Part shown: positions 27,032 to 43,002 of the stretch, piece by piece
Position numbering within the stretch: the stretch's first letter is position 1
How the letters are laid out: each line of letters begins with the position of its first letter
Origin: Candidatus Vecturithrix granuli
Lineage (GTDB): Bacteria > Moduliflexota > Moduliflexia > Moduliflexales > Moduliflexaceae
DNA length: 64,000 bases
Reading direction: 5' to 3'
NCBI GenBank assembly: GCA_000739535.1
Contig: DF820463.1
Location: 834,562 to 898,561, forward strand
Notes under the pieces: generated by a model
What the model saw: only the letters and a program-made list of their open reading frames with translations
Told to the model about the DNA's origin: nothing
Databases searched by the model: none
Position numbers and translations under genes: made by a program

Positions 27032-27910
27032 ATGACAGCCATGGAGATGATCAAAAAGACAGATCACCTGTTTGAAAACATTGACCAGGATGATGAGGTT
27101 TTCTATAACAACATGACATTACCAACAGAGGATGATCTGCCTTATGATGATGGAGAACCTATGGAAACACAACGTCATAGAGATCAGATGAATCTGCTGA
27201 TTGATTCCTTGAAAGCGTACTGGAAAGATCGGAGATTGTATTATATCAGCGGGAATATGTTTTTACACTTTGATCCCCTCAATAAGAGAAAATTCAGAGG
27301 TCCCGATGTGTTTCTCGTTCTGGATGTTGACCCGCGTGAACGTAAATCCTGGGTGGTTTGGCAGGAAGGAATGCGCTTTCCTGATCTGATTATCGAATTG
27401 CTTTCCGACGCGACTCGTGCTATTGACAAGGGAGAAAAAAAGACGTTGTATGAACAGGTCTTTAGAACCGGAGAATATTATCTCTATGATCCTTTTAGCC
27501 AGGAGTTCAAAGGATATAAGCTGACAGGCAGGCATTACACCCCTGTTCTGCCGGACCAAAACTACAAAATTTATTCACCGATCACCGAATTGTTTCTCAT
27601 CATACACGATGAACGGTTGAGGTGGATGACAAAAGATGGGATGATTCTCCCCTCTACAGAAGAATTGTTTGAACAGGAAAAACAACGCGCCGAGCAGGAA
27701 AAACAACGTGCCGAGCAGGAAAAACAACGTGCCGAGCAGGAAAAACAACGCGCCGAGCAGGAAAAACAGCGTGCCGAGCAGGAAAAACAGCGTGCCGAAC
27801 AAGCGGAAGGACGTTTGCTCACAATGGCCCGTCTCATGCTGGCAAAGGGGTATAGTTCTCAGGAAGTCTGTGAATTGACCGGACTTTCTGAGGCAGAACT
27901 TGTGGTCTAA
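27032..27910 (+). CDS. Uma2-family (DUF820) restriction-endonuclease-like protein with heptad repeats
   Basis: The protein has 292 residues and a strong AAGGAGG eight bases before the ATG. The core (about 20-190) is the Uma2/DUF820 PD-(D/E)XK-like fold: GPDVFLVLDVDP, PDLIIELLSDATRAIDKGEKKTLYEQVFRTGEYYLYDP. D and E/K positions of the nuclease motif appear kept. The C-terminal part is six perfect EQEKQRA heptads plus a partial one (coiled coil), then a short helix-turn-helix-like end with SSQEVCELTGLSEAELV. Uma2 proteins are numerous in Cyanobacteria and some other large genomes; their function is unclear. Confidence 0.9.
   Translation: MTAMEMIKKTDHLFENIDQDDEVFYNNMTLPTEDDLPYDDGEPMETQRHRDQMNLLIDSLKAYWKDRRLYYISGNMFLHFDPLNKRKFRGPDVFLVLDVDPRERKSWVVWQEGMRFPDLIIELLSDATRAIDKGEKKTLYEQVFRTGEYYLYDPFSQEFKGYKLTGRHYTPVLPDQNYKIYSPITELFLIIHDERLRWMTKDGMILPSTEELFEQEKQRAEQEKQRAEQEKQRAEQEKQRAEQEKQRAEQEKQRAEQAEGRLLTMARLMLAKGYSSQEVCELTGLSEAELVV
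27671..27796 (+). repeat. Six tandem 21-bp repeats encoding EQEKQRA
   Basis: Six 21-base units lie in frame in the Uma2-like gene, differing only at third positions (CGC/CGT, CAA/CAG). The near identity suggests recent slippage and likely copy-number variation between strains. Confidence 0.95.
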
Positions 27911-28417: not shown

Positions 28418-29782
28418 ATGAAAAGAGCAACCATTCTTGTCGTCCAGCACGATGAATCGGTATTTTCTCTATTACAAGAGTATTTGGTTCGACATGAGTT
28501 TGATGTGCTGTACAAATCCCCCCTCCAACCGCTCACAACTTTGTTGGCAAACAAACATGTTGATCTTGTGATTGTGGGCCCATTTCACTCGGCACCATCA
28601 GATGTGTTAGAAGTGACGCAGGCAATCCAACAACAGAATGAACACGTTCCGATCATCATTATCACCGGCTGTAGTTCTGAAAAACAGATTTTGACAGCAC
28701 TCAAGTTAGGTGTGAGCGATTTTTTTACCCTGCCCCTTGCCTGCGAAGAGCTCTGCGCGAGCATCACTCGAATTCTTGCAAAACAGCACGGAAATGGGAC
28801 GCGTAAGATTCCGGACAGCGCATGTGAAACGATGTGGACGGCGATGATCGGCAAGACGCCGCAAATCTGCGAACTCAAAACTCAGTTGATGAACATTGCA
28901 CCAACAGAGAGTACCGTCTTAATTATTGGGGAGACCGGGACAGGCAAAGAATTGGCGGCCGAGATGATTCATCAGCACAGCCGACGCAAAAATCAGCCCT
29001 TTGTCAGCGTGAATTGCGCTGCGCTGCCTGAGACCCTCATTGAAAGCGAGCTATTCGGCTATGAACGCGGCGCGTTTACCGGCGCTGTCGCCCAGCAACC
29101 CGGGAAATTTGAGCAAGCCAGCGGAGGGACGATCTTGCTGGATGAAATTGGCGACATGGCGTATCAGGCGCAAGCCAAAATTCTGAGAACCCTTGAACAG
29201 CGCGAAATCTATCGTTTAGGCAGTCGCAAAAGTATTCCGATTGACGTGCGCGTGATTGCGGCGACTAACCACGATTTAGAGCAATTAATGCGGAAAAATG
29301 TGTTCAGAAATGACTTGTTTTACCGGCTCAATGTGGCGCAGATTGTTTTGCCGCCTTTACGCGACCGTAAAGAGGATATTCCGCTGTTACTCGATCACTT
29401 TCTGCATGTCATGAATCAGCATTTTGGCAGGCAGGTGCAACGATTTAGCGACGAAACGATCGATATGCTGCTCGCATACGATTGGCCCGGGAATATCCGC
29501 GAACTCAAGAACCTGGTCGAAGCCTCATTCATTAACCTTCCTCCTACCTCTGTTGCAGAAATCACGTTACCCACTCCATTTATCCAACGCTTCCAACTCG
29601 CCCAACAATCGCCCCAGAAAGAACGCGATCAAATTCTGACGGCTCTCTTTGCGACCAATTGGAATAAGAGCAGAGCAGCTCAAAAACTGCACTGGTCGCG
29701 CATGAGTTTATATCGCAAAATGGAAAAATATCAGATTAGCCTCTCCTCTCCAACAAACCCCACAACGAACACTGATTCGTAA
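28418..29782 (+). CDS. Sigma-54-dependent activator (NtrC-type) with degenerate receiver
   Basis: This 454-residue enhancer-binding protein has an N-terminal receiver-like domain (about 4-120), an AAA+ sigma-54 interaction domain and a C-terminal Fis-type helix-turn-helix (about 410-447: NKSRAAQKLHWSRMSLYRKME). Walker A GETGTGKE, the GAFTGA loop (about 218-223) and ILLDEIGDM are intact. The receiver is not canonical: after D49 in VDLVIVGP the phosphoacceptor position is G54, and the usual TKP lysine motif reads TLP. It probably responds to something other than Asp phosphorylation. A sigma-54 promoter follows at 30319, the likely target. Confidence 0.93.
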   Translation: MKRATILVVQHDESVFSLLQEYLVRHEFDVLYKSPLQPLTTLLANKHVDLVIVGPFHSAPSDVLEVTQAIQQQNEHVPIIIITGCSSEKQILTALKLGVSDFFTLPLACEELCASITRILAKQHGNGTRKIPDSACETMWTAMIGKTPQICELKTQLMNIAPTESTVLIIGETGTGKELAAEMIHQHSRRKNQPFVSVNCAALPETLIESELFGYERGAFTGAVAQQPGKFEQASGGTILLDEIGDMAYQAQAKILRTLEQREIYRLGSRKSIPIDVRVIAATNHDLEQLMRKNVFRNDLFYRLNVAQIVLPPLRDRKEDIPLLLDHFLHVMNQHFGRQVQRFSDETIDMLLAYDWPGNIRELKNLVEASFINLPPTSVAEITLPTPFIQRFQLAQQSPQKERDQILTALFATNWNKSRAAQKLHWSRMSLYRKMEKYQISLSSPTNPTTNTDS

Positions 29783-30318: not shown

Positions 30319-30334
30319 TGGCATAGCTCTTGCT
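30319..30334 (+). promoter_or_regulatory. Sigma-54 (-24/-12) promoter
   Basis: TGGCATAGCTCTTGCT has GG and GC elements separated by exactly 10 bases and closely matches the TGGCAC-N5-TTGCW consensus. It lies about 540 bases after the sigma-54 activator gene and 33 bases before the first plausible start codon of the DUF3467 gene. Transcription should begin near 30345. Confidence 0.75.
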
Positions 30335-30366
30335 ATAGAGAAGAAGAAACTGTCTTGTCGAAATAT

Positions 30367-30657
30367 ATGTCAATTGTGAATGGTGAATATGCAATGAAAG
30401 ATGAAAAGTCTAATCCTCTCCAGAACGACGTACTCCACGGGAATTATGCCAACTATTTCAAAGTGGGCTATAATGCCTTTGAATTTATCATTGATTTCTG
30501 CCAATGCTATGAAGATGAGCATGAACGCCATTTGTTTACCAGGGTTGTGACCAGCCCGGTTTATGCCAAAGCGCTCTTCGAAACGCTTCAGAAATCTTTG
30601 TATGACTATGAACAGTCGTTTGGGGTGATCAAAGAGAAGAGTTCAATCAAATCGTGA
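30367..30657 (+). CDS. DUF3467 family protein
   Basis: A protein of 96 residues from ATG 30367, or 87 from ATG 30394. The longer frame from 30259 is rejected because it would start upstream of the sigma-54 promoter. The core GNYANYFKVGYNAFEFIIDF ... RVVTSPVYAKAL, then an LQ-K-L-YEQ-FG-I tail, matches DUF3467, a small cytoplasmic family of unknown function seen in varied bacteria. It is the first gene after the -24/-12 promoter and probably the first of the operon to 39336. Confidence 0.85.
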   Translation: MSIVNGEYAMKDEKSNPLQNDVLHGNYANYFKVGYNAFEFIIDFCQCYEDEHERHLFTRVVTSPVYAKALFETLQKSLYDYEQSFGVIKEKSSIKS

Positions 30658-30708
30658 AAGCCACACATATCTGGTGATTGATTCGAATGAAAGGAGGTGA
30701 ATCCCATT

Positions 30709-31041
30709 ATGCTTTGTTATCATGAAAAGATCAGAAAGCAAGATATTGGGGGCGGTATCCTTGTTCAAGTTTTGGGGCACGGGCAAAATATGAATGTCTT
30801 GCATTGGAATTTTGCGGAGAAGAGTCAAGAGGTGAAGATGCACCAACATGTTGAAGAACAATTCGGCTATGTGATCAAAGGTGGATTTAACATCACCATT
30901 CAAGATGAAGTTTTTACCATTATGGCAGGTGATGCGTATTTTATTCCGTCGAATATACCACATTCATTTGCTGCTATTGGGGAAACGGAAGCGATTGACG
31001 TCTTTAGTCCTGTCAGAAAAGACATTCCGTGGAAAGAATAG
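30709..31041 (+). CDS. Cupin-domain protein (module 1)
   Basis: This 110-residue single-domain cupin starts at ATG 30709, 11 bases after AAAGGAGG. The first cupin motif has HQHVEEQFGYVIKG (His, His, Glu ligands) and the second has PSNIPHSF. The metal site looks complete. Small cupins serve as isomerases, dioxygenases or ligand sensors. A second cupin at 34674 occupies the equivalent position in the second module. Confidence 0.88.
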   Translation: MLCYHEKIRKQDIGGGILVQVLGHGQNMNVLHWNFAEKSQEVKMHQHVEEQFGYVIKGGFNITIQDEVFTIMAGDAYFIPSNIPHSFAAIGETEAIDVFSPVRKDIPWKE

Positions 31042-31097
31042 TCATCTGAAGCGTCTTTTAAGAACCTTAAAACAATCAAATAATGGAGGAAGTAGCA

Positions 31098-31862
31098 ATG
31101 GCAAAAAAAGTTTTAGTCTTAGCAACGAATTATGGTGCGTGGGCAGAAGAATTACAGGCTCCATGGGATGCATTGAAACAAGCAGGGGTCGATGTGACCC
31201 TGGCAACCTATCTGGGGAAAACACCTTTACCAATCACAATAAGCATGGATCCTGAATTTATAGATGGTTATCAAGGATATAAGGTGAATCCGGCGGAAGT
31301 CGTCAATCGGATGAAAGAGCTGTTGGCAAGCGGCGAATTGGATCATCCGATCAAAATCGCGGATGCGAAGATGGAAGATTACGACGCGTTAGTGATGACC
31401 GGCGGTCCGGGCAATCCATTGGATATTTGCAACAATCCCAAAGTTCATCGGTTAATCCTGAATGCAGTCAAAAATGATAAAATGGTCGGAGCTGTTTGCT
31501 ATTCGGTTGGAGCGCTGGCATTCACCCGGGACCCCGATAATAATTACAAAAGCGTGATTTACGGAAAAACCGTGACCGCTCATCCGCGGGTGTGGGATTT
31601 TGTGGATTTTGATCTGACCTATCCCTTGTATGGGAAAACCGACGATAATGCTGGCACAGATTTAATGACGCCGGGGTTTGGCATCCCGCTTCAAGATATT
31701 GTCGAAGATGCCGTCGGCCCCCAGGGAAAATGTATCGCTGAAGATAAAGCCACCCGCGATAAACCGTGTGTCGCCTATGATTGGCCATTTGTCACGGGAT
31801 TGTCCGTTGAGTCATCCATTGCCTACGGGCAAAAATTAGTAGAAGTTTTGTCAGGAAGATAA
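31098..31862 (+). CDS. DJ-1/PfpI family protein (module 1)
   Basis: About 254 residues from ATG 31098, which has GGAGG at the right distance; 31083 is too early. The fold is class I glutamine-amidotransferase-like: VLVLATNY start, acidic residue in AWAEELQAP, ALVMTGGPGNP loop and the nucleophile elbow GAVCYSVGAL (Cys about 134). It is longer than PfpI and closer in size to Hsp31-type glyoxalase III/chaperone proteins. By family it could act on methylglyoxal or similar carbonyl compounds; this is inference. Confidence 0.87.
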   Translation: MAKKVLVLATNYGAWAEELQAPWDALKQAGVDVTLATYLGKTPLPITISMDPEFIDGYQGYKVNPAEVVNRMKELLASGELDHPIKIADAKMEDYDALVMTGGPGNPLDICNNPKVHRLILNAVKNDKMVGAVCYSVGALAFTRDPDNNYKSVIYGKTVTAHPRVWDFVDFDLTYPLYGKTDDNAGTDLMTPGFGIPLQDIVEDAVGPQGKCIAEDKATRDKPCVAYDWPFVTGLSVESSIAYGQKLVEVLSGR

Positions 31863-31994
31863 GAAGGGCTTAGGAAGATAGCGTTATCGGAAAAAATTCC
31901 TTGTCAGTGGGTTAATTATCACCATGTATCACGATTCTTCACGCTGTGACGGATAGTTTTTTTCCGGTAACGTTAAAAAAGGAGGTATGTATTC

Positions 31995-33650
31995 ATGAAT
32001 GTCAGTGAAGCAATTGTCAAAATGCTTGAATCAGTCGGCGTAGAGCGGATGTTTGGCGGGTCGGGCCATAGTGTTGTTGGAATGTTACTAACCATCAAAA
32101 AGGCTTCTAAGCACCTGAAAGCGATCATGGTGAAAAATGAACAGGCCGCTTCTTTTATGGCCTGTGGATATGCGATGTTTTCCGATAAATTGGGGGTATG
32201 TTTCTCCTCTGGCGGCCCGGGGGAATTTAATCTCTTGTCTGGTTTGGCTGTGGCGTTATCCGATTCTTTACCGGTCTTAGCCATTTCAGGACACGTTTCA
32301 GAAGCCGAAAAGGGCAAAGGCGCGTTAAATGAATCCTCCGGCTTACGTCGCACCCCGGATGCCCGGGCGATCTTTGCGGCAACCACGAAAAAATCCTTTA
32401 TTGTGGAACATCCGGATCAAATTTGCGATATCATGGAAGAGGCCGTCAATTTGGCCTTTGAAGGTCGCCCCGGTCCTGTGCATATTCATTTGCCAAAATC
32501 GGTCGTGATGGCGGATGTGAAGAACTTTCGGGAGATTAAGCTCAACATCAAACCTGTCTTGCCTGATCCGGCAACCATCAGAGAGTTTGCGCAGGTACTT
32601 GAGAAAGCGCTCACCGCAAAAGAACAGATAGTCGCGTTAATCGGATATGGAGCGGTCAGAAGTCATGCGGAACAAGAATTGCTGGCATTTGTGGAACAAT
32701 TTCAGATCCCCTTTATTACCACGATGGATGCCAAAGGGATTCTCTCGGAAGATCATCCGTTGAGCCTGGGAGGTCTCGGTCGTTCTGGCGATCCGGGCGC
32801 CAAAAAATATTTTGATCAGTCGAAGATTGTCCTGGCGATTGGCAATTCGTTTGCCCAGAACGCAACGTATGCCTTTCAAGAAGACCTGTATCAAAACAAG
32901 GTATTAATGCACATCAATATTGACGCTGAGGAAATCAGCAAAGTCTATCACGCTGATTACAGGATGGTGAGCGATGTGAAACCTGCGATTGCCGGCTTGA
33001 CAGCCGAACTTTCGAGGACGATTCGGTCGGTTGAACCGAAAACCATCGTCAAGGAAAAATGGTATGATCTCCCGATAGAATATTCCGGCAGCAAAATTTA
33101 TCCAGCGGACATGGTCAAAGTTCTGTCGAGGAATCTCCCGGAAAATGCTATTGTGCTTGGAGATGCCGGGGCGAACATGCTCTGGTTGTATTGTTATCTC
33201 AAAATGACCAAAAGGCAAAATTATCAAAATCCCGGGAGTTTCGGACCGATGGCGAGTCATGTGAACGGCGCCATTGGGATTAAATGCGCTAATCCTGATC
33301 GCCCTGTAATTTCGGGGTGTGGCGACGGCGATTACCTGATGGCCGGATTTGAATTATTGACCGCTGTCGAGAATAATATTCCGGTGATCTGGATTGTGTT
33401 CAATAATGGCGATTTGAGTGTCAACAAATATTTTATGATCCAAACATTTGGCGAACATGCATATATGCAGTTCAAAAATCCGGATTATGCGGCTTACGCA
33501 AAAGCATGTGGAGCAGTCGGGTACACCGTGACGAAATTAGAAGATTTCGAACCGGTATTGCAGGAAGCCTTGCGCTTGAATCAGCCGGTCTTGATTGATG
33601 TCGTTATCGAATCGGAGGTGTACCCGCCATTTCATCTGGGGCGGGCGTAA
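31995..33650 (+). CDS. Thiamine-diphosphate-dependent enzyme (acetolactate-synthase-like), module 1
   Basis: The protein has 551 residues and a strong AAAGGAGG leader. It has the three-domain plan of acetolactate synthase/benzoylformate decarboxylase enzymes: N-terminal PYR domain with the catalytic Glu (about 49, in KNEQAASFMACGYA), a central domain (SLGGLGRSGDPGAKKYF) and a C-terminal PP domain with GDG (about 443-445) and NN about 26 residues on. It aligns over its whole length with the enzyme at 35126. These enzymes decarboxylate 2-keto acids or ligate aldehydes. Substrate is unknown; whether it binds FAD is not clear from sequence. Confidence 0.9.
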   Translation: MNVSEAIVKMLESVGVERMFGGSGHSVVGMLLTIKKASKHLKAIMVKNEQAASFMACGYAMFSDKLGVCFSSGGPGEFNLLSGLAVALSDSLPVLAISGHVSEAEKGKGALNESSGLRRTPDARAIFAATTKKSFIVEHPDQICDIMEEAVNLAFEGRPGPVHIHLPKSVVMADVKNFREIKLNIKPVLPDPATIREFAQVLEKALTAKEQIVALIGYGAVRSHAEQELLAFVEQFQIPFITTMDAKGILSEDHPLSLGGLGRSGDPGAKKYFDQSKIVLAIGNSFAQNATYAFQEDLYQNKVLMHINIDAEEISKVYHADYRMVSDVKPAIAGLTAELSRTIRSVEPKTIVKEKWYDLPIEYSGSKIYPADMVKVLSRNLPENAIVLGDAGANMLWLYCYLKMTKRQNYQNPGSFGPMASHVNGAIGIKCANPDRPVISGCGDGDYLMAGFELLTAVENNIPVIWIVFNNGDLSVNKYFMIQTFGEHAYMQFKNPDYAAYAKACGAVGYTVTKLEDFEPVLQEALRLNQPVLIDVVIESEVYPPFHLGRA

Positions 33651-33747
33651 AAGAGCCTCTTAAAACAGTATGACTAACTATCATGAGTGCAATGGCGTAA
33701 TCACTATCAGGATTGCGTTGTCACCGTATTTATAGCGAGGAAAATTT

Positions 33748-34197
33748 ATGCTCAAAACGTTGGATCATGTTCAACTTGTTACCAGTAACATTGAAGAAAC
33801 AAAGGAGTTCTTTACCCAAGTACTTGGCTTTACCGTGGAAAATGAGGATGATTTACAGGGGGCATGGCTTGCGAAATTGGTCAATCGTGAAGACGCACAC
33901 GCTCGCGTAGCCCAGTTGGTGCATCCCAATTCAAGAACTCATCTTCACGTGGTTGAATATATTACGCCGCGTTCTGAACCTAGTCCCAATATCAGTAGAG
34001 AACATGCCATGGGTTTTCGGCACATCGGTTTTGAAGTAGATAACATTGATGAAATGGTTGAAACATTAAAAAAACGAGGCGTCGAGTTTCGTAGCCCGGT
34101 TCAAGAATATCCCAAATGGGCTAAGAAAGCAGTATATTTTTTGGGACCCGACGGAATTCTACTAGAATTATACGAATATCTCGAAAAAAGTCACTAG
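33748..34197 (+). CDS. VOC-family (glyoxalase/dioxygenase-like) protein
   Basis: The 149-residue protein has the paired beta-alpha-beta-beta-beta modules of the VOC fold: LDHVQLVTSNIEETKEFFTQVLGF at the start, LHVVEYITP, FRHIGFEVDNIDEMVETL, and FLGPDGILLELYEY at the end. The His and Glu positions of a metal site are kept. Members include glyoxalase I, methylmalonyl-CoA epimerase and ring-cleaving dioxygenases. With the neighbouring DJ-1 and tautomerase genes a role in carbonyl chemistry is likely, but the substrate is unknown. Confidence 0.88.
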   Translation: MLKTLDHVQLVTSNIEETKEFFTQVLGFTVENEDDLQGAWLAKLVNREDAHARVAQLVHPNSRTHLHVVEYITPRSEPSPNISREHAMGFRHIGFEVDNIDEMVETLKKRGVEFRSPVQEYPKWAKKAVYFLGPDGILLELYEYLEKSH

Positions 34198-34228
34198 GCT
34201 CTATGGCGCGAGGTAATTCGCGAAACCA

Positions 34229-34273
34229 TGCGCTTCGTGCATCCTGATATGCGTGAAGGATGCACGAAGCACT
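34229..34273. terminator. Hairpin between VOC and tautomerase genes
   Basis: GCGCTTCGTGCATCC and GGATGCACGAAGCAC are near-perfect complements across a 13-base loop. No U-tract follows, so it is more likely a processing or attenuation hairpin within the operon, or a small repeat, than a strong terminator. Confidence 0.5.
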
Positions 34274-34326
34274 CACAGACAGATTCTATTCTTATAAGTC
34301 TCGTAATCAACAAAGGAGGAAATCCT

Positions 34327-34596
34327 ATGCCAGCTATTACGGTTCAAAGCTTAGAGCTTGCCCAGGAACAGAAAGAATTTCTTGCGGAAAAATTCATTAC
34401 ACTCTTCTCTGAAGTGACAAAAGTTCCTCAGGATCGCATCTATTTGTTTTTTGACGGTTATCCGCTTGATTGCACCGTGAAGGGCGGAAAATTGTTCTCG
34501 GAAAACCCTCCCAAGGGGATCGTGGGAAAATTTAACCAGACAGAACATGTCGAGTTTTTAAAAAATCTTCGAAATTCTCTTGCAGAACATGAATAG
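34327..34596 (+). CDS. Tautomerase-superfamily protein (Pro-1)
   Basis: An 89-residue protein from ATG 34327, which follows AAAGGAGG; the longer frame from 34228 runs through a hairpin. The second residue is Pro (MPAITVQS), which after Met removal gives the catalytic N-terminal Pro-1 of the 4-oxalocrotonate tautomerase/MIF superfamily. The length and the central VTKVPQDRIYLFFDGYPLD strand fit a single-module tautomerase. These enzymes interconvert enol and keto forms, matching other genes here that act on keto or aldehyde groups. Confidence 0.78.
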   Translation: MPAITVQSLELAQEQKEFLAEKFITLFSEVTKVPQDRIYLFFDGYPLDCTVKGGKLFSENPPKGIVGKFNQTEHVEFLKNLRNSLAEHE

Positions 34597-34673
34597 AAGG
34601 CTTTGTGGTTTCCTTGTTATTCTGGATAAAGAGAGATGATGAGAGCAAGTTTACTGAAAGAAGGGGCAACATT

Positions 34674-35030
34674 ATGACTAAGCTAATCTTACCCGGTTTT
34701 AAAGAGGTGCCATGGTCTACGCGTTTGATTTCCTGGCAAGAAGCGTTGAGCGAATGTATGACCATGGCAAACTGTGACCTACAGGTGTTTTTTCTTGATT
34801 ATCCGGCGGGTACCATCAGAACGACCCATTTGCATGAGGAAATTCGTCTGGTGTTTGTTCGTTGCGGGAAAGTGACCATGACGGTGGAGGATCAAACCAC
34901 AGAATTTCAGCCTGGTGATATGATTGCCCTGCTTCCCAATACACTCCACAGCCTGACAGTCCTTGGCGAAGACCCTTTACGTCTTGCGGAATTTATTATT
35001 ACCCCGATCAAGCATAAGAGGGATGAATAA
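34674..35030 (+). CDS. Cupin-domain protein (module 2)
   Basis: About 118 residues from ATG 34674 (AAGAAGGGG upstream). First motif THLHEEIRLVFVRCGKV and second motif LPNTLHSLTV give two or three His ligands and a Glu. It carries VEDQTTEFQPGDMIALLP between them, as in small metal-binding cupins. It corresponds by position to the cupin at 30709 but the two are only distantly alike. Function is unknown. Confidence 0.85.
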   Translation: MTKLILPGFKEVPWSTRLISWQEALSECMTMANCDLQVFFLDYPAGTIRTTHLHEEIRLVFVRCGKVTMTVEDQTTEFQPGDMIALLPNTLHSLTVLGEDPLRLAEFIITPIKHKRDE

Positions 35031-35034
35031 TAAC

Positions 35035-35103
35035 AGGACTGACGCTCCCTTAACCGGCCATTCGCCCTTGAGTCGAGGGGCCGGTTGAGGGAGCGTCAGT
35101 CCT
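35035..35103. repeat. Long 25-bp hairpin inside the operon
   Basis: The left arm (35035-35059, AGGACTGACGCTCCC...) and right arm (35079-35103) are complementary over 25 bases with one G/T wobble and a 19-base loop. It lies between the second cupin and second thiamine enzyme genes, with no U-tract. It may attenuate or stabilise the mRNA or be a small mobile palindrome. Confidence 0.8.
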
Positions 35104-35125
35104 GCATATAACAGGGAGGAAAAAA

Positions 35126-36772
35126 ATGGATGTTGGTCAAAGTATCATTAAGAACCTTGAATTAATTGGCGTTGACCATGTGTTCGGAGGTTCAGGGCAG
35201 GCAAATGCGTCTTTGATGGCAGCGTTAAAAGCTTCCGAAAAGATTAAAACCGTGATTGTTCGGAATGAACAAGCTGCATCATTCATGGCCTGTGGCTATG
35301 CCATGTTTTCAGATAAATTAGGCGTCTGTTTTTCGACCGCTGGACCCGGTGCATTTAATCTATTCTCTGGGCTGGCAGTAGCATATTCGGATTCGCTCCC
35401 CGTGCTTGCGATCTCAGGATATGCTTCTGTTGCGTATCAAGGCAAAGGCGCGTTAAATGAAACAACCGGTTTAAACCGAACTCCGGATTCGCAGAAAATG
35501 TTTGCGTCCACAACCAAGCAAACCTATCTGATTGAACGGCCAAGTCAGACGTGTGATGTTCTGGAAGAAGCGGTGAATACTGCCTATGAAGGCCGTCCCG
35601 GTCCCGTGCATATCCACATCCCGAAAGATATCGCGATGGCCCAGGTTCCTAACTTTCGAGAGATCGCCTTAAAAATACATCCTGTATTGCCGAAACCGGA
35701 GACTATTCAGGCTTTTGCGGATAGACTTGCCAAAGCAATCATGTATCAAGAACAGATCGCGCTGCTTATTGGTTACGGCGCCATCCGCAGTCACGCCGAA
35801 CAAGAACTCCTGAAATTGGTCGAGCAATTTCAAATTCCATTTATGACGACGATGGATGCCAAAGGGGTGCTGCCGGAAAATCATCCACTTTCGCTCGGCG
35901 TGTATGGAACATCCGGCGATCCAGGGGCAAACGCCTATTTTGACCGTGCTGCACTCATCCTGGCGTTGGGCAATTCCTTTGCTCAAAATGCGACCTTTGC
36001 TTTCAAGCCTGACTTATATGATCACAAGACGTTGCTGCACATCAATATTGATCGCAATGAAATCAATAAAGTCTATCGCGCTGATTATGCCATGATCAGC
36101 GATATTAAACCGGCGATCATTGGGATAACGGCAGAATTGGCGCAAACCATCCGTTCCGTTGAGCCAAAACAGATTGAAAAAAAGAAGTGGCATGATATGC
36201 CGCTGAATTATACCGGTGCCAAAATTCACCCTGGCGAATTCGTCAAAATCTTATCGCGGAATTTACCGGAAAATGCCATTGTTTTAGGGGATGCCGGTTC
36301 ACACATGCTCTGGCTCAATTGCTATTTGAATCTCACCAAGAACCAGCGGTATCAGAATCCAGGTACCTTTGGACCGATGGCCAGCCATACCAACGGCGCA
36401 CTCGGCGTAAAATGCGCAAATCCTGATAAAGTGGTCATTTCCGGCAGTGGCGATGGCTGCTATCTAATGGCAGGTTTTGAACTTTTGACCGCCGTTCAAA
36501 ATAACATCCCCGTCATCTGGGTGATCTTCAATAATGGTGAGTTCAATGTCATTAAGAAACTCCTTCTCAATATGTCCAATGAACCTGCCTTTATGCAGTT
36601 TGAAAATCCTGACTATGTGATGTATGCCAATGCCTGCGGCGCGGATGGTTACCGCGTGGAAAAATTGGAAGACTTCGAAGGTGTGCTCCAGAAGGCATTA
36701 CGGTCGAATAAACCCACCCTGATTGATATGGTAGTAGAATCGGAAGTCTATCCTCCGTTTAATTTAACCTGA
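35126..36772 (+). CDS. Thiamine-diphosphate-dependent enzyme (acetolactate-synthase-like), module 2
   Basis: This 548-residue protein is a full-length paralogue of the enzyme at 31995. It keeps the catalytic Glu (about 48, in RNEQAASFMACGYA), the GDG motif (about 442-444, SGSGDGCYLMAGFELL) and the NN pair (IFNNG). Differences cluster near the active-site entrance, for example YGTSGDPGANAYF and NNGEFNVIKKLL in place of GRSGDPGAKKYF and NNGDLSVNKYFM. It may use a different substrate or form a mixed tetramer with its paralogue. GGGAGGAAAAA precedes the ATG. Confidence 0.9.
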   Translation: MDVGQSIIKNLELIGVDHVFGGSGQANASLMAALKASEKIKTVIVRNEQAASFMACGYAMFSDKLGVCFSTAGPGAFNLFSGLAVAYSDSLPVLAISGYASVAYQGKGALNETTGLNRTPDSQKMFASTTKQTYLIERPSQTCDVLEEAVNTAYEGRPGPVHIHIPKDIAMAQVPNFREIALKIHPVLPKPETIQAFADRLAKAIMYQEQIALLIGYGAIRSHAEQELLKLVEQFQIPFMTTMDAKGVLPENHPLSLGVYGTSGDPGANAYFDRAALILALGNSFAQNATFAFKPDLYDHKTLLHINIDRNEINKVYRADYAMISDIKPAIIGITAELAQTIRSVEPKQIEKKKWHDMPLNYTGAKIHPGEFVKILSRNLPENAIVLGDAGSHMLWLNCYLNLTKNQRYQNPGTFGPMASHTNGALGVKCANPDKVVISGSGDGCYLMAGFELLTAVQNNIPVIWVIFNNGEFNVIKKLLLNMSNEPAFMQFENPDYVMYANACGADGYRVEKLEDFEGVLQKALRSNKPTLIDMVVESEVYPPFNLT

Positions 36773-36790
36773 CATGAAGGAGAACAGCTT

Positions 36791-37384
36791 ATGAAACTCC
36801 AAAAGCAAAAGATCGGGATATTGATAGAAGGTGATTTTTACGAGCCGGAAATCTGGTATTACAAATTTCGATTCGCAGAAGAAGGCGTGGAAGTGCGCTT
36901 TTTGACCCGCATGTGGGGCCAAACATCGGAAGTGATGACGAACGGTTTTAAAGGCCATGAATTTCAGATCCCCTTTAGCCAGATCGCTTCGGTAGAAAGC
37001 TTTGAGAATATGGATGACGCCACGCTCAAAAGCTATGCCGCAATTATTGTCCCGGCCGGACAGGTGGCAGATCGGCTGCGGTTTACAGAAGACATTCACA
37101 AGCTTCCGCCGGCGGTAGAATTCCTGAAACGGGCGTTTGCAGACAAGAAGATTCTCAAAGGGATTATCTGCCATGGGTTGTGGCTGGTCGCGCCGGCGCC
37201 GGAATTAGTGCGAGGCCGGAAAATCGTCGTACACAATAACTTGCTTGGCGACGCCAAAAACATGGGCGCGGTGTATGTGGATGAAGATGTCGTTGTGGAT
37301 GGCGATCTCGTGACTGCGCGCACGGGCGGACACTGCCATCTGTTTGCGCGTACGATTATTGAGCTGTTAGCCGAAAGGATATAG
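36791..37384 (+). CDS. DJ-1/PfpI family protein (module 2)
   Basis: This 197-residue protein follows the thiamine enzyme by 18 bases. It opens KIGILIEGDFYEPEIWYYKFRFAE, with the conserved Glu, and has the nucleophile elbow GIICHGLWLVAPA (Cys about 127, next to His as in PfpI), and ends TGGHCHLFARTIIELL. It is PfpI-like in length and differs from the longer DJ-1 protein at 31098. PfpI relatives have protease, glyoxalase III or deglycase activities reported; which applies is unknown. Confidence 0.9.
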   Translation: MKLQKQKIGILIEGDFYEPEIWYYKFRFAEEGVEVRFLTRMWGQTSEVMTNGFKGHEFQIPFSQIASVESFENMDDATLKSYAAIIVPAGQVADRLRFTEDIHKLPPAVEFLKRAFADKKILKGIICHGLWLVAPAPELVRGRKIVVHNNLLGDAKNMGAVYVDEDVVVDGDLVTARTGGHCHLFARTIIELLAERI

Positions 37385-37479
37385 ATTAATAGAATCCCTG
37401 TGAACGCTATGGCAAGTCCTCAAAAGTGTGTAGCGCGTGTAATCCGTTATTGAGTGTTCAACAAGGAGGAACAAGAACT

Positions 37480-39336
37480 ATGAATCAGATGAATTTTGAA
37501 TTTTCGGATACAATCGCCGGGTATGTCCAGGAGTATAACAAAGAGCAGGACACGTTTGTTGTCAAAACCACGGATGACCGCGAATATGTGATCAAAATCG
37601 GCGCGGAAACCTACGGGTGGATCGCCAATACGCCAGGCGAACCGCGTACCTGGCTCAGCCGCGATCAGATGCGCGCCATGCTCGAACCCGGTCGTTACCT
37701 GTTCGCTTATGGGATTTTCTACCCTGAAAAAGGCGGACATACTATCGAGACGCAGTTCATGGTCTTTCCCGGAAAAAAAGTAGGGACCTACGGCTTTGAA
37801 CGCCAAAACTGGTGGATTCAACAAATTGATGAATTAGGCAAATTTTACCTGAAGGCTCAATTCGGCGAACAGGCATTGGAGTTTGAAGACGATGCCTATA
37901 AAAAAGCGATTGACTATGACAATTATCGCACGACGATTAAGTTAAGCGGCGAAAAAGAAAAAGACAACTATCGTCAGGAAACGGATACGATCTCCCGTAT
38001 GGTCTATGGATTTGCCTCAGCCTATATGTTGACCGGCGATGACCGCTTCCTGGAAGGCGCGGAAAAAGGCACGCAATATTTGCGCGACCACATGCGTTTT
38101 TATGACGCCGATGAAAATATCGTCTATTGGTATCACGGGATTGACGTGCATGGCAAACGTGAAGATAAGGTGTTTGCCTCGGAATTCGGCGACGATTTTG
38201 ACGCGATCCCGTGCTATGAACAGATTTATGCCCTGGCCGGGCCGATTCAGACTTACCGCGTCACCGGAGATCCGCAAATTCTCAAAGACGCGGAAATGAC
38301 CGTGGATTTGTTTGACCGCTTCTATCTGGATAAAGCGCAGGGCGGCTATTTCTCGCACCTTGACCCGATTATGCTCGATCCGCGCAGTGAATCCCTGGGG
38401 GCGAACAAAGGCAAAAAGAACTGGAACTCCGTCGGCGACCATGCGCCGGCCTATTTGATTAACCTGTATCTGGCGACTGGCGAAAAACGCTATGCGGATT
38501 TCCTGGAATATACCTTTGACACCATCGAAAAATATTTCCCTGATTACGAGAACAGCCCCTTTGTGCAGGAGAAATTTTTCGAAGACTGGTCGCACGATAA
38601 TAGCCACTTATGGCAGAAAACCCGCGGCGTCGTCGGCCATAACTTGAAAATCGCCTGGAACATCACGCGCATGCACAACCTGAAACCCAAAGACAAGTAT
38701 GTAACTTTTGCCCGCAAAATCGCGGAAGAAATGGCAAAAGTCGGCATGGATACCCAGCGCGGCGGCTGGTACGATGTCATGGAGCGCAAACTGCGCGGCG
38801 ATGAAGAAGTGCATCGTTTTGCCTTCCACGATCGCAAAGCCTGGTGGCAGCAGGAACAAGGGATTCTGGCCTATCAAATTATGCATGGAGTTTTTGGTGA
38901 CGAGATTTATTTGAAACTGGCGCGGGAGTCCGCGGCGTTCTACAATGCCTTCTTCCTGGATCATGATGACGGCGGAGTCTATTTCAATGTTTTGAATAAC
39001 GGTTTACCTTATCTGATGGGCACGGAACGTTTCAAAGGCAGCCATTCGATGAGTTTTTACCATTCGTCGGAATTGTGCTTCCTGGCTGCGGTCTATATCA
39101 ATCTGCTGATCACCAAACAGCCGCTGGAACTGTACTTTAAACCCTATCCGAACGGCTTCAAACGCAATATCTTGCGCGTGTCGCCCGACATTCTGCCTCC
39201 GGGCAGCATCAAGATCGCTGAGTGCTGGATTGACGATGAACCGTACACCAATTTTGAGGTCAAAGCCTTAACCGTAAAATTGCCAGATACGAAAAAACAG
39301 GTGCGCGTCAAAGTGCGTATTGAACCGACGAAGTAA
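37480..39336 (+). CDS. N-acylglucosamine-2-epimerase-like (AGE) protein
   Basis: About 618 residues from ATG 37480, which has AAGGAGG 10 bases upstream. After about 140 residues of beta-rich N-terminus (GYVQEYNKEQDTFVVKTTDD ...) comes an (alpha/alpha)6-barrel with AGE/cellobiose-epimerase-like features: MVYGFASAYMLTGDDRFLEGA, GGYFSHLDP, NSVGDHAPAYLINLYLATGEKRY and RGGWYDVMERKL. The last 80 residues form a second beta part. Family members epimerise free sugars at C2. The N- and C-terminal extensions are unusual. It is the last gene of the proposed operon. Confidence 0.8.
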   Translation: MNQMNFEFSDTIAGYVQEYNKEQDTFVVKTTDDREYVIKIGAETYGWIANTPGEPRTWLSRDQMRAMLEPGRYLFAYGIFYPEKGGHTIETQFMVFPGKKVGTYGFERQNWWIQQIDELGKFYLKAQFGEQALEFEDDAYKKAIDYDNYRTTIKLSGEKEKDNYRQETDTISRMVYGFASAYMLTGDDRFLEGAEKGTQYLRDHMRFYDADENIVYWYHGIDVHGKREDKVFASEFGDDFDAIPCYEQIYALAGPIQTYRVTGDPQILKDAEMTVDLFDRFYLDKAQGGYFSHLDPIMLDPRSESLGANKGKKNWNSVGDHAPAYLINLYLATGEKRYADFLEYTFDTIEKYFPDYENSPFVQEKFFEDWSHDNSHLWQKTRGVVGHNLKIAWNITRMHNLKPKDKYVTFARKIAEEMAKVGMDTQRGGWYDVMERKLRGDEEVHRFAFHDRKAWWQQEQGILAYQIMHGVFGDEIYLKLARESAAFYNAFFLDHDDGGVYFNVLNNGLPYLMGTERFKGSHSMSFYHSSELCFLAAVYINLLITKQPLELYFKPYPNGFKRNILRVSPDILPPGSIKIAECWIDDEPYTNFEVKALTVKLPDTKKQVRVKVRIEPTK

Positions 39337-39487
39337 AGTTTACAAGTGAGCTAAAGTGAGCTAAAGTGACTAAAGTTTCAAGTGCCTAAAGTTAAAGAGC
39401 CTGGCAGCCCCGCCCTACTTGGGGGGAATGATGCCGATACTTTTAAGTCCCTTTAGTCCCTTTAGTCATTTGCAAACTTCCGATATG
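39337..39487. repeat. Inverted array of AGTGACTAA-type repeats (copy 2 of 3)
   Basis: AAGTGAGCTAAAGTGAGC-type units on the left and CCCTTTAGTCCCTTTAGTC units on the right form a long imperfect hairpin. It separates the epimerase-like gene from the STAS gene and may end the upstream operon. Confidence 0.7.
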
Positions 39488-39489
39488 TT

Positions 39490-39825
39490 ATGGAAATTAC
39501 TGTAAAAACTGTTGAACATGTCACTGTCTTTGAAATTGTCGGTGATATAGACGGAAAAACAGCGCCGCAGGTTTTGGAGAACGTCAAAGCCGAGGCTCCG
39601 TCAGGCGGAAAAGTCCTGTTAGACATGAGCCAGGTACCCTATATGTCCAGTGCCGGGCTGCGCGTGCTGTTATCAATCTACCGCTATGTTAGCGGCGGTC
39701 ATGGTAGTCTTGTACTGACCGGACTGAATGAAGAAATCAAAGATACGATGGATATGACAGGATTCCTCAGCCAATTTACCACGTGTGATACAGTCGCTGA
39801 GGGCATACAAGCCCTGAGCGATTGA
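39490..39825 (+). CDS. STAS-domain anti-sigma factor antagonist 1
   Basis: The 111-residue protein is a single STAS domain. The phosphorylation loop reads PYMSSAGLRVLL, with S54 at the position phosphorylated by RsbW-type kinases. VLTGLNEEIKDTMDMTGF near the end is typical. In partner switching the unphosphorylated form binds the anti-sigma kinase. The kinase and phosphatase candidates are encoded at 44864 and 43003. No clear ribosome-binding site is visible. Confidence 0.93.
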   Translation: MEITVKTVEHVTVFEIVGDIDGKTAPQVLENVKAEAPSGGKVLLDMSQVPYMSSAGLRVLLSIYRYVSGGHGSLVLTGLNEEIKDTMDMTGFLSQFTTCDTVAEGIQALSD

Positions 39826-39895
39826 GAATTGAGCGTTGAGTGTTGAGAATTGAGAATGGCTTTCATCTTCAATCCTCAATCTTCAATAGTCACTG
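39826..39895. repeat. CAATTCTCAAT short intergenic repeat (copy 2)
   Basis: GAGAATTGAG units are followed by the complementary TCAATCCTCAATCTTCAATAGT. It matches the block at 25735-25781 and lies just before the debranching-enzyme start. Confidence 0.6.
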
Positions 39896-39900
39896 GTATT

Positions 39901-42078
39901 GTGGAACGAATAGATATTCACCCAACACATAGTTATAAAGGGTACAAGCTGCGTCCTGGCCGTCCTTATCCGTTTGGAACTACGATTGTTCCGGGCGGAG
40001 TGAATTTTTCCGTGTTCTCGCGTCATGCTCATTACGCAGAACTAGTGATCTTTGAAAAAGGGTCCATGGCGCCGATGGTGGAAATCCCGTTTCGCGGCAT
40101 GTTTCTGAAAGCCGATACCGATGAACCGGTGTGGGGCGAATTTCGCATCGGCAATGTGTTTACGATGACGGTGTTCGGCCTGGATGACGAAAATATCGAA
40201 TATGGCTTTCGCATGGGTGGACCAGGAGGACATGTCGAAAAAGGACAACCGGGATTCCACCGCTTTGATCGCAACACGATTCTGCTCGATCCCTATGCAA
40301 AAGCGATTGGCGGCCGCGATGTGTGGGGTAAAACGCCCAATTGGGAAGATTCCTATCAACATCGCGCCCGTGTGGTACGCGACGATTTCGATTGGGAAGG
40401 CGATCGTCCCCTGGAAATTCCAATGGAAGACCTGATCATCTATGAAATGCACGTGCGCAGTTTTACCAAACACCCATCTTCCGGCGTGAAACATCCGGGC
40501 ACTTTTGCGGCGATCCGTGAAAAAATCCCGTATCTGAAAGAGTTAGGCGTCAATTGTCTTGAACTGATGCCGATTTTTGAGTTTGATGAATTTGAAAATA
40601 GCAAAATTAGCCCGATGACAGGCGAACTGTTGATGAATTATTGGGGCTATAGCACCGTCGGGTTCTTTGCCCCGAAGGCCGGATATGCAGCGACCGGTAA
40701 ATCCAAAGACGGCACTATGGTCGCCGATGAGTTGAAAACCCTAATCAGAGAATTACACCGCAACGAGATTGAAGTGATCCTTGATGTGGTCTATAACCAC
40801 ACGGCCGAAGGCAATGAATGGGGGCCGACCATCTCATACAAGGGGATTGATAATAGCACCTATTATATCCTGACGCCGGAAGGTTACTACTACAATTTCA
40901 GCGGCTGCGGCAATACCTTGAATTGCAACAATTCCGTGGTGCGCGACATGGTGATTGACAGCCTGCGCTATTGGGCTTCAGAATATCACATTGACGGTTT
41001 CCGGTTTGACCTGGCCTCGATTTTGTCGCGCGACCAGTCTGGCGCGCCATTGCCGAATCCGCCGTTGTTGGAATCCCTGGCCAATGATCCGATCCTCGGC
41101 AAGTGTAAATTGATTGCCGAAGCCTGGGACGCCGGCGGGTTGTATCAGGTAGGTTCCTTCCCGGCGTATGGCCGCTGGGCCGAGTGGAACGGCAAATATC
41201 GGGATACGCTGCGCAAATTCTTGAGAGGCGATCCTGGTCAGGTGGGTGATATGGTCCAGGGATTTCAGGGATCGTCGAACCTGTATTATGGACGCGGCAC
41301 AACAGCGTCGATCAATTTTGTGACCGCTCATGATGGATTCACATTGATGGACAATGTTTCGTATAATGGCAAACATAACGAAGCGAACGGCGAAAACAAT
41401 AACGACGGAGCCAATGACAATAATAGCTGGAATTGCGGTTGGGAAGGCTTCACGGAAGATGCTGGCATTCAAACCTTGCGCAAAAAACAGGTCAAAAATG
41501 CGTTGGCTATGCTGCTGGTCAGCCAGGGCGTCCCGATGATTTTGATGGGGGATGAGGCCGGACGCACGCAATTGGGCAATAATAACACCTACTGCCAGGA
41601 TAACGACCTGAATTGGTTTAATTGGGCGTTGTTAGAACAACATGCCGATCTCTTCCGCTTTGCCAGGAACATGATTGCTTTCCGCCATGCTCATCCGACC
41701 CTACGGAATCGCGATCACTTCCAACATCGGGATTATGTGGGCAGCGGGTATGCTGATATTAGCTGGCATGGTGTGAACGCCTGGAATATGGATTGGTCCT
41801 CGGACAGCCGGACGCTTGCCTTTCTCCTATGTGGGCAACATGCCAAAGGTGGGACGGCAAAAGATATGTCTATTTATGTGGCTGCCAATATGTACTGGGA
41901 ACCGCTGGAGTTTACGATTCCCGCCTTGCGGGAAGGAGTGAGATGGCATGTCTTTGCGAATACGTCGCTGCCTGCGCCTGATGATATTTGCGAACCGGGG
42001 AAGGAGGTTCCCTTTGCTGAGGGACAATACACCTATCTGGTAGGGGATCGTTCGGTCGTCATTCTTGTTGGGAAATAA
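39901..42078 (+). CDS. glgX: Glycogen debranching enzyme (GlgX/isoamylase-type, GH13)
   Basis: About 725 residues from GTG 39901; an earlier frame start (ATG 39856) lies inside a repeat. A CBM48 domain (PYPFGTTIVPGGVNFSVFSRHA) is followed by a GH13 barrel with DVVYNHTAEG, GFRFDLAS (nucleophile D about 370), LIAEAWDAGG (acid/base E about 407) and VTAHDGFTL (D about 478), and a beta-domain at the end. This matches GlgX/TreX enzymes that cleave alpha-1,6 branches of glycogen. It is unusual that the gene sits between two STAS genes; no other glycogen gene is in the window. Confidence 0.92.
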   Translation: MERIDIHPTHSYKGYKLRPGRPYPFGTTIVPGGVNFSVFSRHAHYAELVIFEKGSMAPMVEIPFRGMFLKADTDEPVWGEFRIGNVFTMTVFGLDDENIEYGFRMGGPGGHVEKGQPGFHRFDRNTILLDPYAKAIGGRDVWGKTPNWEDSYQHRARVVRDDFDWEGDRPLEIPMEDLIIYEMHVRSFTKHPSSGVKHPGTFAAIREKIPYLKELGVNCLELMPIFEFDEFENSKISPMTGELLMNYWGYSTVGFFAPKAGYAATGKSKDGTMVADELKTLIRELHRNEIEVILDVVYNHTAEGNEWGPTISYKGIDNSTYYILTPEGYYYNFSGCGNTLNCNNSVVRDMVIDSLRYWASEYHIDGFRFDLASILSRDQSGAPLPNPPLLESLANDPILGKCKLIAEAWDAGGLYQVGSFPAYGRWAEWNGKYRDTLRKFLRGDPGQVGDMVQGFQGSSNLYYGRGTTASINFVTAHDGFTLMDNVSYNGKHNEANGENNNDGANDNNSWNCGWEGFTEDAGIQTLRKKQVKNALAMLLVSQGVPMILMGDEAGRTQLGNNNTYCQDNDLNWFNWALLEQHADLFRFARNMIAFRHAHPTLRNRDHFQHRDYVGSGYADISWHGVNAWNMDWSSDSRTLAFLLCGQHAKGGTAKDMSIYVAANMYWEPLEFTIPALREGVRWHVFANTSLPAPDDICEPGKEVPFAEGQYTYLVGDRSVVILVGK

Positions 42079-42082
42079 GAAC

Positions 42083-42160
42083 TGTACCGCGAAATTCCTT
42101 TTCGCGGTACAGTTCTGTCTGATGCGCGAAAAGGAATTTCGTGCGACATTTTCAAAGGAG
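42083..42160. repeat. CGCGAAA palindromic leader repeat (copy 2)
   Basis: TGTACCGCGAAATTCC pairs with its complement (TTCGCGGTACA), then GCGCGAAAAGGAATTTCG, then ACATTTTCAAAGGAG. It ends with an AAAGGAG five bases before an ATG that opens a 42-codon frame running through copy 3; this frame is probably not a gene. Confidence 0.85.
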
Positions 42161-42200
42161 TGCTCATGAGCGGGTATTCACCCGTCATCATGAACATGAG

Positions 42201-42277
42201 ATGTACCGCGAAACTCCAGTTTCGCGGTGGTCAACAATGCGCGAAACTGGAGTTTCGCGGTACATTTTCAAAGGAGA
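42201..42277. repeat. CGCGAAA palindromic leader repeat (copy 3)
   Basis: Same plan as copies 2 and 4: TGTACCGCGAAACTCC with its complement, GCGCGAAACTGGAGTTTCGCG, then TACATTTTCAAAGGAG. Its AAAGGAG is the ribosome-binding site of the STAS gene at 42284. Confidence 0.88.
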
Positions 42278-42283
42278 ATTATT

Positions 42284-42625
42284 ATGGCTTTTGATGTGAC
42301 GTTAGAAATGGTTAAAGGAACTATTGCCAAAATTACCTTATCAGGCGAGTTAGACGCCAGTGTGGCTGCACAATTCAAGGCGAAAGTGGAAGAAGCCGCT
42401 GCCCAAAAAGCGAAACGCCTGGTGTTGATGCTGCAAGACCTGTCGTATATTGCCAGCGCCGGGATTCGAGTGCTGATTTTCGCCAAACAGAAAATGGGCT
42501 CCGGCGTGGATATTTTTGTGGTCGCGCCCCAGGAACAGGTAATGGAAACTCTGGAAATGACCGGGCTGCAATACAGTGTCGAAGTGCTCGACGTGTATGA
42601 TGCTGAAAAAATAGAAACGTTGTAA
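42284..42625 (+). CDS. STAS-domain anti-sigma factor antagonist 2
   Basis: This 113-residue single STAS domain starts at ATG 42284, seven bases after AAAGGAG inside a repeat. The loop YIASAGIRVLI has S58 in the regulated position, and VAPQEQVMETLEMTGL gives the C-terminal helix region. It is related to but distinct from STAS 1. It is likely a phospho-switch partner of the kinase at 44864 and phosphatase at 43003. Confidence 0.93.
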   Translation: MAFDVTLEMVKGTIAKITLSGELDASVAAQFKAKVEEAAAQKAKRLVLMLQDLSYIASAGIRVLIFAKQKMGSGVDIFVVAPQEQVMETLEMTGLQYSVEVLDVYDAEKIETL

Positions 42626-42649
42626 ACAGCAAATTGTGTTTGAAAGATA

Positions 42650-42680: not shown

Positions 42681-42688
42681 TTACTTCT

Positions 42689-42954: not shown

Positions 42955-43002
42955 CGTATTACACGCAGAGAGGAAATTTCATTTTACAGGGGAGATAATA
43001 TT

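What the first reader, a model, noticed from the sequence alone, without database searches (positions are those of the whole stretch)
30319..39336. Sigma-54-driven operon built from two versions of a cupin / DJ-1 / thiamine-enzyme module
After a -24/-12 promoter the genes run: DUF3467, cupin, DJ-1 (254 aa), thiamine enzyme, VOC protein, Pro-1 tautomerase, cupin, thiamine enzyme, DJ-1 (197 aa), AGE-like epimerase. The thiamine enzymes are full-length paralogues, so the cupin/DJ-1/thiamine set appears twice in different order. DJ-1, VOC and tautomerase families all handle carbonyl or keto-enol groups, and AGE proteins epimerise sugars. I infer a pathway that makes or detoxifies a reactive keto or aldehyde compound, possibly sugar-derived. 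I know of no described operon with this set.
Basis: partly seen in the sequence, partly recalled or inferred. Interest (0 to 1): 0.75.

Follow-up and report, generated by a model that had tools for sequence, protein, structure and literature searches.

The report
icfG-type glycogen-control cluster with DJ-1/thiamine pair
The ten genes are the front half of a widespread, mostly unstudied bacterial gene cluster that pairs a thiamine-dependent enzyme and DJ-1 proteins with glycogen-handling enzymes and a phosphorylation switch, like the carbon-control (icfG) operon known from cyanobacteria.

Summary
The genes are real and at the stated coordinates. From AGE onward this is the order of the Synechocystis icfG operon (slr1855-slr1861), linked to glucose and inorganic-carbon metabolism. 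The 'no described operon' claim is therefore half wrong. The conservation test is passed strongly: 38 loci from at least 11 phyla carry the TPP enzyme with this gene set, and AGE clusters in Deinococcota, Cyanobacteriota and Actinomycetota extend it. Of 23 relatives with at least 13.5 kb of DNA, DJ1A is present in 23, cupin 21, DJ1B 20, AGE 19, GlgX 17. The thiamine enzyme and DJ1A occur as neighbouring pairs in three diverged lineages. 'Two versions of one module' is only partly right: the TPP enzymes are paralogues (67.5%), but the two DJ-1s show no sequence similarity and the cupins almost none. The sigma-54 site is weak statistically and not conserved. My model: a switch-gated branch from glycogen (GlgX, AGE) into carbonyl chemistry (DJ-1, TPP, tautomerase, VOC). 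Substrates are unknown. Filed as a new variant of a known kind.

The parts
28418..29782 (+). Sigma-54 activator (response regulator + AAA+ with GAFTGA + Fis HTH); lies upstream, not conserved with the cluster
   Evidence: Pfam; absent from related loci
30319..30333 (+). Possible -24/-12 (sigma-54) promoter TGGCATAGCTCTTGC
   Evidence: 7 found vs 3.4 expected in window; not conserved in relatives
30364..30657 (+). DUF3467 protein
   Evidence: PF11950, 57.8 bits
30697..31041 (+). cupA, Cupin_2; present in 21 of 23 long related loci
31098..31862 (+). DJ1A, Hsp31/glyoxalase-III-like DJ-1 protein, invariant E18 and C134
31995..33650 (+). TPPA, thiamine diphosphate enzyme of the acetolactate-synthase-like superfamily
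33748..34197 (+). VOC/glyoxalase-like protein
   Evidence: PF00903
34324..34596 (+). Pro-1 tautomerase (TAUT), next to the TPP gene in type-I relatives
   Evidence: PF01361
34674..35030 (+). cupB, Cupin_2, in only a few relatives
35126..36772 (+). TPPB, paralogue of TPPA (67.5%), 65-72% identical to Omnitrophota type-I enzymes
36791..37384 (+). DJ1B, PfpI-type DJ-1 protein, 64% identical to the Deinococcus and Runella cluster members
37483..39336 (+). AGE-superfamily sugar epimerase/isomerase with N- and C-terminal extensions; invariant H386 and H527; fused to STAS in other bacteria
39490..39825 (+). STAS1, anti-sigma-antagonist-like, SSAG phosphosite motif
   Evidence: PF01740; sequence
39850..42078 (+). 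GlgX, isoamylase-type glycogen debranching enzyme; 70% identical to the Nostoc plasmid cluster GlgX
42227..42625 (+). STAS2, ASAG motif; the STAS type found fused to AGE elsewhere
43003..44784 (+). Response regulator-GAF-SpoIIE (PP2C-type) phosphatase, IcfG/RsbU-like
   Evidence: PF07228 143 bits
44864..45310 (+). RsbW/SpoIIAB-like HATPase_c_2 protein (putative STAS kinase)
   Evidence: PF13581 84 bits

Best explanation
The finding is the enzymatic front of a roughly 15-kb icfG-type cluster (30319 to 45310). Shown: gene content, order, wide conservation, intact catalytic residues, STAS-AGE fusions elsewhere. Inferred: GlgX frees malto-oligosaccharides from glycogen; AGE epimerises or isomerises a free sugar from that pool; the DJ1A-TPP pair, helped by tautomerase, VOC, cupins and DJ1B, converts or clears keto/aldehyde compounds derived from it. 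The SpoIIE phosphatase and RsbW-like kinase set the phosphorylation of the two STAS proteins, which gate the branch either by binding the enzymes (AGE::STAS fusions) or by releasing a sigma factor, as for SigC in Synechocystis.
For: Order AGE-STAS-GlgX-STAS-PP2C-HATPase equals slr1855-1857, 1859-1861 as described in PMC8670252 and PMC12329169. Nostoc NIES-3756 plasmid: DJ1B-AGE-STAS-GlgX, identities 32/64/47/70%. 38 loci of at least 11 phyla with the set; 44 Rhizobium/actinomycete-type loci of the same TPP family have none of it. AGE is rare (11/296 Bacteroidota, 1/296 Actinomycetota, 2/145 Omnitrophota) but is found in 16 of 20 genomes with the cluster-type TPP. In the random Bacteroidota draw all four complete loci with a close AGE carry DJ1A2-TPP2-DJ1B-VOC-GlgX-AGE. 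AGE::STAS fusions. Glycogen genes nearby: GlgE/GlgB in Streptomyces, GlgC in a spirochaete, and a second STAS-GlgX pair about 5.5 kb from a GlgC-like gene in the own genome. AGE fold closest to D-mannose isomerase, cellobiose and glucose 2-epimerases. DJ1A fold closest to REP24, glyoxalase III, Hsp31.
Against: No substrate is identified for any enzyme. No expression or single-transcript evidence: the gap 42625-43003 is 377 bp with a terminator-like hairpin at 42907. Synechocystis sequences themselves could not be compared. TPP and DJ1A are not reported for the Synechocystis operon in the papers read. No cognate sigma factor sits in the cluster.
Confidence: 0.62

Rival explanations
1. The cluster makes and exports a small sugar-derived metabolite: GlgX/AGE supply the sugar, the TPP-DJ1A pair builds or cleaves the carbon skeleton, and variable oxidoreductases tailor it.
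For: Variable accessory genes in relatives: GMC oxidoreductases, EthD, SnoaL/NTF2-like, ABM monooxygenase, alpha/beta hydrolases, Nif11-type precursor peptides, and an MFS transporter in type-I loci.
Against: No backbone synthase; in the window itself no exporter or tailoring oxidoreductase lies in the unit; the regulatory half matches a primary carbon-control operon.
Confidence: 0.25
2. General carbonyl/desiccation stress protection: DJ-1 and VOC proteins detoxify or repair glycation that arises when glycogen is mobilised; the partner switch is a stress-response switch.
For: DJ1A glyoxalase-III-like fold; two DJ-1 proteins in most loci; carriers include Deinococcus and a desert cyanobacterium.
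Against: Does not explain the pairing of DJ1A with a TPP enzyme or the AGE; no glyoxalase equivalog cut-off is reached; in Synechocystis the operon is repressed by salt (PMC8670252).
Confidence: 0.2
3. One reading: a sigma-54-driven stand-alone operon of two duplicated cupin/DJ-1/TPP modules.
For: Sigma-54 activator upstream, a correctly spaced TGGC-N7-TTGC site, rpoN present, TPP paralogues.
Against: Site statistically weak and not conserved; DJ-1s and cupins not duplicates; the unit continues into STAS-GlgX-STAS-PP2C-HATPase.
Confidence: 0.1

Closest known systems
icfG operon slr1852-slr1862 of Synechocystis sp. PCC 6803
   Same: AGE, STAS, GlgX, STAS, PP2C phosphatase, RsbW-like kinase in the same order (PMC8670252, PMC12329169); linked to glucose/inorganic-carbon control
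   Different: TPP enzymes, DJ1A, tautomerase, VOC and the cupins are not reported for it; a carboxymuconolactone decarboxylase (slr1853) is; phosphatase sensor domains may differ
RsbVWU / SpoIIAA-AB-E partner-switching systems
   Same: STAS, HATPase_c_2 and SpoIIE phosphatase set
   Different: two STAS proteins interleaved with metabolic enzymes, STAS fused to AGE in relatives, no sigma gene in the cluster
AGE-superfamily glucose/cellobiose 2-epimerases and D-mannose isomerase
   Same: alpha/alpha barrel, two conserved histidines; Z 22-25 over 354-375 residues
   Different: 14-20% identity; about 100-residue N-terminal and 60-70-residue C-terminal extensions; NCBIfam equivalog cut-offs far from met
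Acetolactate-synthase-like TPP enzymes, nearest solved relatives BbmA and CsmA
   Same: three TPP domains, catalytic Glu, GDG-NN motif
   Different: below every equivalog cut-off shown; AHAS FQ motif and arginine replaced
Hsp31 / glyoxalase III / REP24 DJ-1 proteins
   Same: fold and invariant Glu/Cys of DJ1A
   Different: about 20% identity; residue after the nucleophile is Tyr (Phe in one relative), not His

Membership tests
icfG-type operon | AGE-STAS-GlgX-STAS-PP2C-RsbW-like kinase in this order | tested here: met
   Pfam on window proteins against the published gene list
icfG-type operon | Sequence orthology to the Synechocystis proteins | not testable with these tools
   That genome could not be reached; a Nostoc plasmid cluster stands in: AGE 64%, STAS 47%, GlgX 70%
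icfG-type operon | Kinase phosphorylates, phosphatase dephosphorylates the STAS proteins | not testable with these tools
   Only the SSAG/ASAG motifs are seen
Acetohydroxyacid synthase (TPPA/TPPB) | Score over the curated cut-off of TIGR00118 or another ALS equivalog | tested here: not met
   317 and 328 bits against 538
Acetohydroxyacid synthase (TPPA/TPPB) | GTDAFQE motif and active-site Arg (RFDDR) | tested here: not met
   Aligned residues GKGALNE and GNSFAQN in TPPB; GNS invariant in 23 sequences; role of these residues from general knowledge
ThDP-dependent enzyme superfamily | Three TPP domains, catalytic Glu, GDG...NN cofactor motif | tested here: met
Glyoxalase III / Hsp31 (DJ1A) | Fold with Glu and nucleophile Cys | tested here: met
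Glyoxalase III / Hsp31 (DJ1A) | Curated equivalog score | tested here: not met
   TIGR01383 27 of 131 bits, NF003168 23 of 365
AGE epimerase superfamily | GlcNAc_2-epim domain with both catalytic histidines | tested here: met
   64.6 bits over cut-off 23.4; H386 and H527 align to cellobiose 2-epimerase and are invariant in 19 sequences
Known anti-phage defence system | Match of enzyme genes to PADLOC models | tested here: not met
   Only GlgX hits a GlgB-like model, nine others none

The most novel reading that the evidence does not exclude
An undescribed glycogen-fed metabolic branch, spread across many phyla and plasmids, in which STAS domains gate sugar enzymes directly rather than a sigma factor, and in which one slot is filled by any of three co-diverged TPP-DJ1A pairs that act as a single catalytic unit.
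Probability: 0.35. Interest if true: 0.78.

Novelty: new variant of a known kind. Interest (0 to 1): 0.58.

Why it matters
The icfG operon has been studied for three decades as a cyanobacterial carbon-control locus, and the papers read here give no account of why an AGE epimerase and a debranching enzyme sit among the switch proteins. Showing that the same core occurs in anaerobic candidate phyla, Deinococcus, Streptomyces and Bacteroidota, joined to a DJ-1/TPP pair, makes it a general bacterial system and gives cultivable carriers in which its chemistry and the STAS-enzyme link can be tested.

Tried and rejected
AHAS function for the TPP enzymes: rejected on cut-offs and residues. Anti-phage defence: no support. 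Conserved sigma-54 control: not supported. TPPA/TPPB as a recent local duplication: not supported; both fall near the base of type I and group together in 10% of bootstrap trees. DJ1A of the window belongs to the type-II clade (100/99) although its TPPs are type-I-like, so the window looks like a hybrid of two lineages. BbmA/CsmA literature search gave nothing useful. Paper searches for the whole set found none. A SigB/F/G sigma search of the own genome found only sub-cut-off homologues, so no obvious cognate sigma factor was identified.
Full report
OBSERVATION. The two TPP enzymes are 67.5% identical over full length. The two DJ-1 proteins give no significant BLAST match to each other, and the two cupins match at 29% over 48 residues. 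So only the TPP enzyme is clearly duplicated. The promoter-like sequence TGGCATAGCTCTTGC (30319-30333) has the right spacing; seven such sites occur in the window against 3.4 expected, and related loci carry the pattern at about that background density. A sigma-54 activator lies just upstream (28418-29782) and the genome encodes RpoN, so sigma-54 control remains possible but is not shown.

THE UNIT IS LONGER. Downstream of AGE lie STAS (39490), GlgX (39850), STAS (42227), a response regulator-GAF-SpoIIE phosphatase (43003) and an RsbW-like ATPase (44864). This order equals that published for the Synechocystis icfG operon: Slr1855 N-acetylglucosamine 2-epimerase, Slr1856 STAS, Slr1857 GlgX1, Slr1859 STAS, Slr1860 IcfG, Slr1861 kinase (PMC8670252; PMC12329169). 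In that organism Slr1861 is an anti-sigma factor for SigC, phosphorylates the two STAS proteins, IcfG dephosphorylates Slr1856, and mutants are impaired in glucose and low-carbon growth. I could not compare the Synechocystis proteins directly. A Nostoc plasmid cluster (L096) served instead: AGE 64%, STAS1 47%, GlgX 70% identical.

CONSERVATION. A scan of 84,980 species genomes with TPPB returned 79 loci. Thirty-eight carry the gene set or, on short contigs, part of it, from at least 11 phyla: Omnitrophota, Bacteroidota, Riflebacteria, Spirochaetota, Balneolota, Myxococcota, Mcinerneyibacteriota, Pseudomonadota (one Alphaproteobacterium), Elusimicrobiota, Kiritimatiellota, Bacillota. In the 23 loci of 13.5 kb or more: DJ1A 23, cupA 21, DJ1B 20, AGE 19, GlgX 17, tautomerase 16, STAS1 15, STAS2 14; DJ1A ends within 2.5 kb upstream of TPP in 31 of 38 loci. 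Forty-four loci of the same TPP family, mostly from rhizobia and actinomycetes, carry none of these neighbours. They sit instead beside a catalase/peroxidase-type protein (33 loci) and others.

TEST FROM THE OTHER SIDE. AGE was used as an independent anchor. On plasmids it finds full-length relatives in Deinococcus, Nostoc, Runella, Gemmobacter, Gloeothece, Gloeocapsopsis and Streptomyces. Most of their clusters contain DJ1B and, outside most cyanobacteria, a DJ1A-TPP pair that is only 30-36% / 23-26% identical to the window's although AGE is mostly 50-64% identical. In whole genomes AGE is rare: 11 of 296 Bacteroidota, 1 of 296 Actinomycetota, 2 of 145 Omnitrophota. Each of these samples includes its centre genome, which was chosen because it carries the TPP. 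AGE occurs in 16 of 20 genomes that carry the cluster-type TPP. In the random Bacteroidota draw, four complete loci with a close AGE all read DJ1A2-TPP2-DJ1B-VOC-GlgX-AGE, with AGE 722 aa long, the size of the AGE::STAS fusion; one contig cut at AGE shows DJ1B-GMC-TPP2-DJ1A2, and one 6.9-kb contig shows AGE-GlgX only. Four more distant AGEs (42-45%) lack the TPP nearby. Planobispora has DJ1A2-TPP2-GMC-DJ1B-AGE-STAS-GlgX-STAS-HATPase-PP2C-MinD.

EVOLUTION. The TPP tree separates type I (tautomerase-linked), type II (DUF2878-linked, 100/100) and the Rhizobium/actinomycete outgroup (100/100); TPPA and TPPB both sit near the base of type I with moderate support (81/90) and are not clear sisters. 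The window's DJ1A belongs to the type-II DJ1A clade with 100/99 support. In single-TPP relatives DJ1A type follows TPP type. The window therefore looks like a hybrid of two lineages.

ENZYMES. TPPA/TPPB keep the catalytic Glu and the GDG...NN cofactor motif but fall far below acetolactate-synthase cut-offs, and in TPPB the AHAS motif GTDAFQE and its arginine (RFDDR) are replaced by GKGALNE and GNSFAQN. The functional meaning of these AHAS residues is from general knowledge. DJ1A has an invariant E18 and C134; its model (pLDDT 92.7) is closest to REP24, glyoxalase III of Candida, Hsp31 and SAV0551. AGE has invariant H386 and H527, which align with the histidines of a cellobiose 2-epimerase; its barrel (model pLDDT 78.7, with weak loops, two of which hold these histidines or lie next to them) matches D-mannose isomerase, cellobiose 2-epimerases (Z 23-25) and glucose 2-epimerase (Z 22; 354-375 residues, rmsd 3.1-3.7).

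LINK BETWEEN SWITCH AND ENZYMES. In Nostoc, Gloeothece and Gemmobacter STAS is fused to the C-terminus of AGE, and that STAS matches STAS2 rather than STAS1. In the window's own genome a second STAS-GlgX pair lies on contig 19, GlgX 70% identical, about 5.5 kb from a GlgC-like gene (GlgC by reading the sequence). Streptomyces clusters include GlgE and GlgB; a spirochaete cluster includes GlgC. These tie STAS to glycogen enzymes repeatedly.

MODEL. Shown: content, order, conservation, fusions, intact catalytic residues. Inferred: glycogen is debranched (GlgX), a released sugar is epimerised or isomerised (AGE), and a DJ1A-TPP pair with helpers handles a carbonyl compound; the kinase/phosphatase pair sets STAS phosphorylation and so gates the enzymes or a sigma factor. 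Whether the branch is catabolic, protective or biosynthetic is open. Variable oxidoreductases, EthD, SnoaL-like and Nif11 genes in relatives favour biosynthesis in some of them; nothing in the window does.

NOVELTY. Part of the set is a described operon (icfG); the union with the DJ1A-TPP pair and its spread I did not find described in the open papers searched, which omit most subscription journals. Hence 'new variant of a known kind'.

Noticed in passing
L008-L010, L045-L089 (flanks of the TPP gene): Rhizobial and actinomycete relatives of the TPP enzyme sit next to a ~970-aa catalase/haem-peroxidase-type protein (33 of 44 loci), a 473-aa family (19 loci) and a patatin (13 loci): a second, different conserved neighbourhood of the same TPP family.
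   Followed up: partly
L134:7952-10597 (G000:C19): A second STAS-GlgX pair, GlgX 70% identical to the window's, with a GlgC-like gene at L134:16148-17518 in the same genome.
   Followed up: partly
L100:15164-15824: Nostoc ATCC 53789 plasmid: two Nif11-type leader-peptide genes between EthD and GMC oxidoreductase genes inside an AGE-DJ1B-DJ1A-TPP cluster.
   Followed up: no
L012:12078-14069 and homologues: Type-I clusters carry a ~665-aa protein with three Lcl_C domains, plus FGE-sulfatase-like proteins and an MFS transporter; no clear signal peptide on the Lcl_C protein.
   Followed up: partly
window 27571-27910: Protein 27032-27910 has a run of EQEKQRA heptad repeats before its C-terminus.
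   Followed up: no
window 45592-48515: FtsH-like protease and a YVTN-type beta-propeller lipoprotein-like protein directly downstream of the cluster.
   Followed up: no
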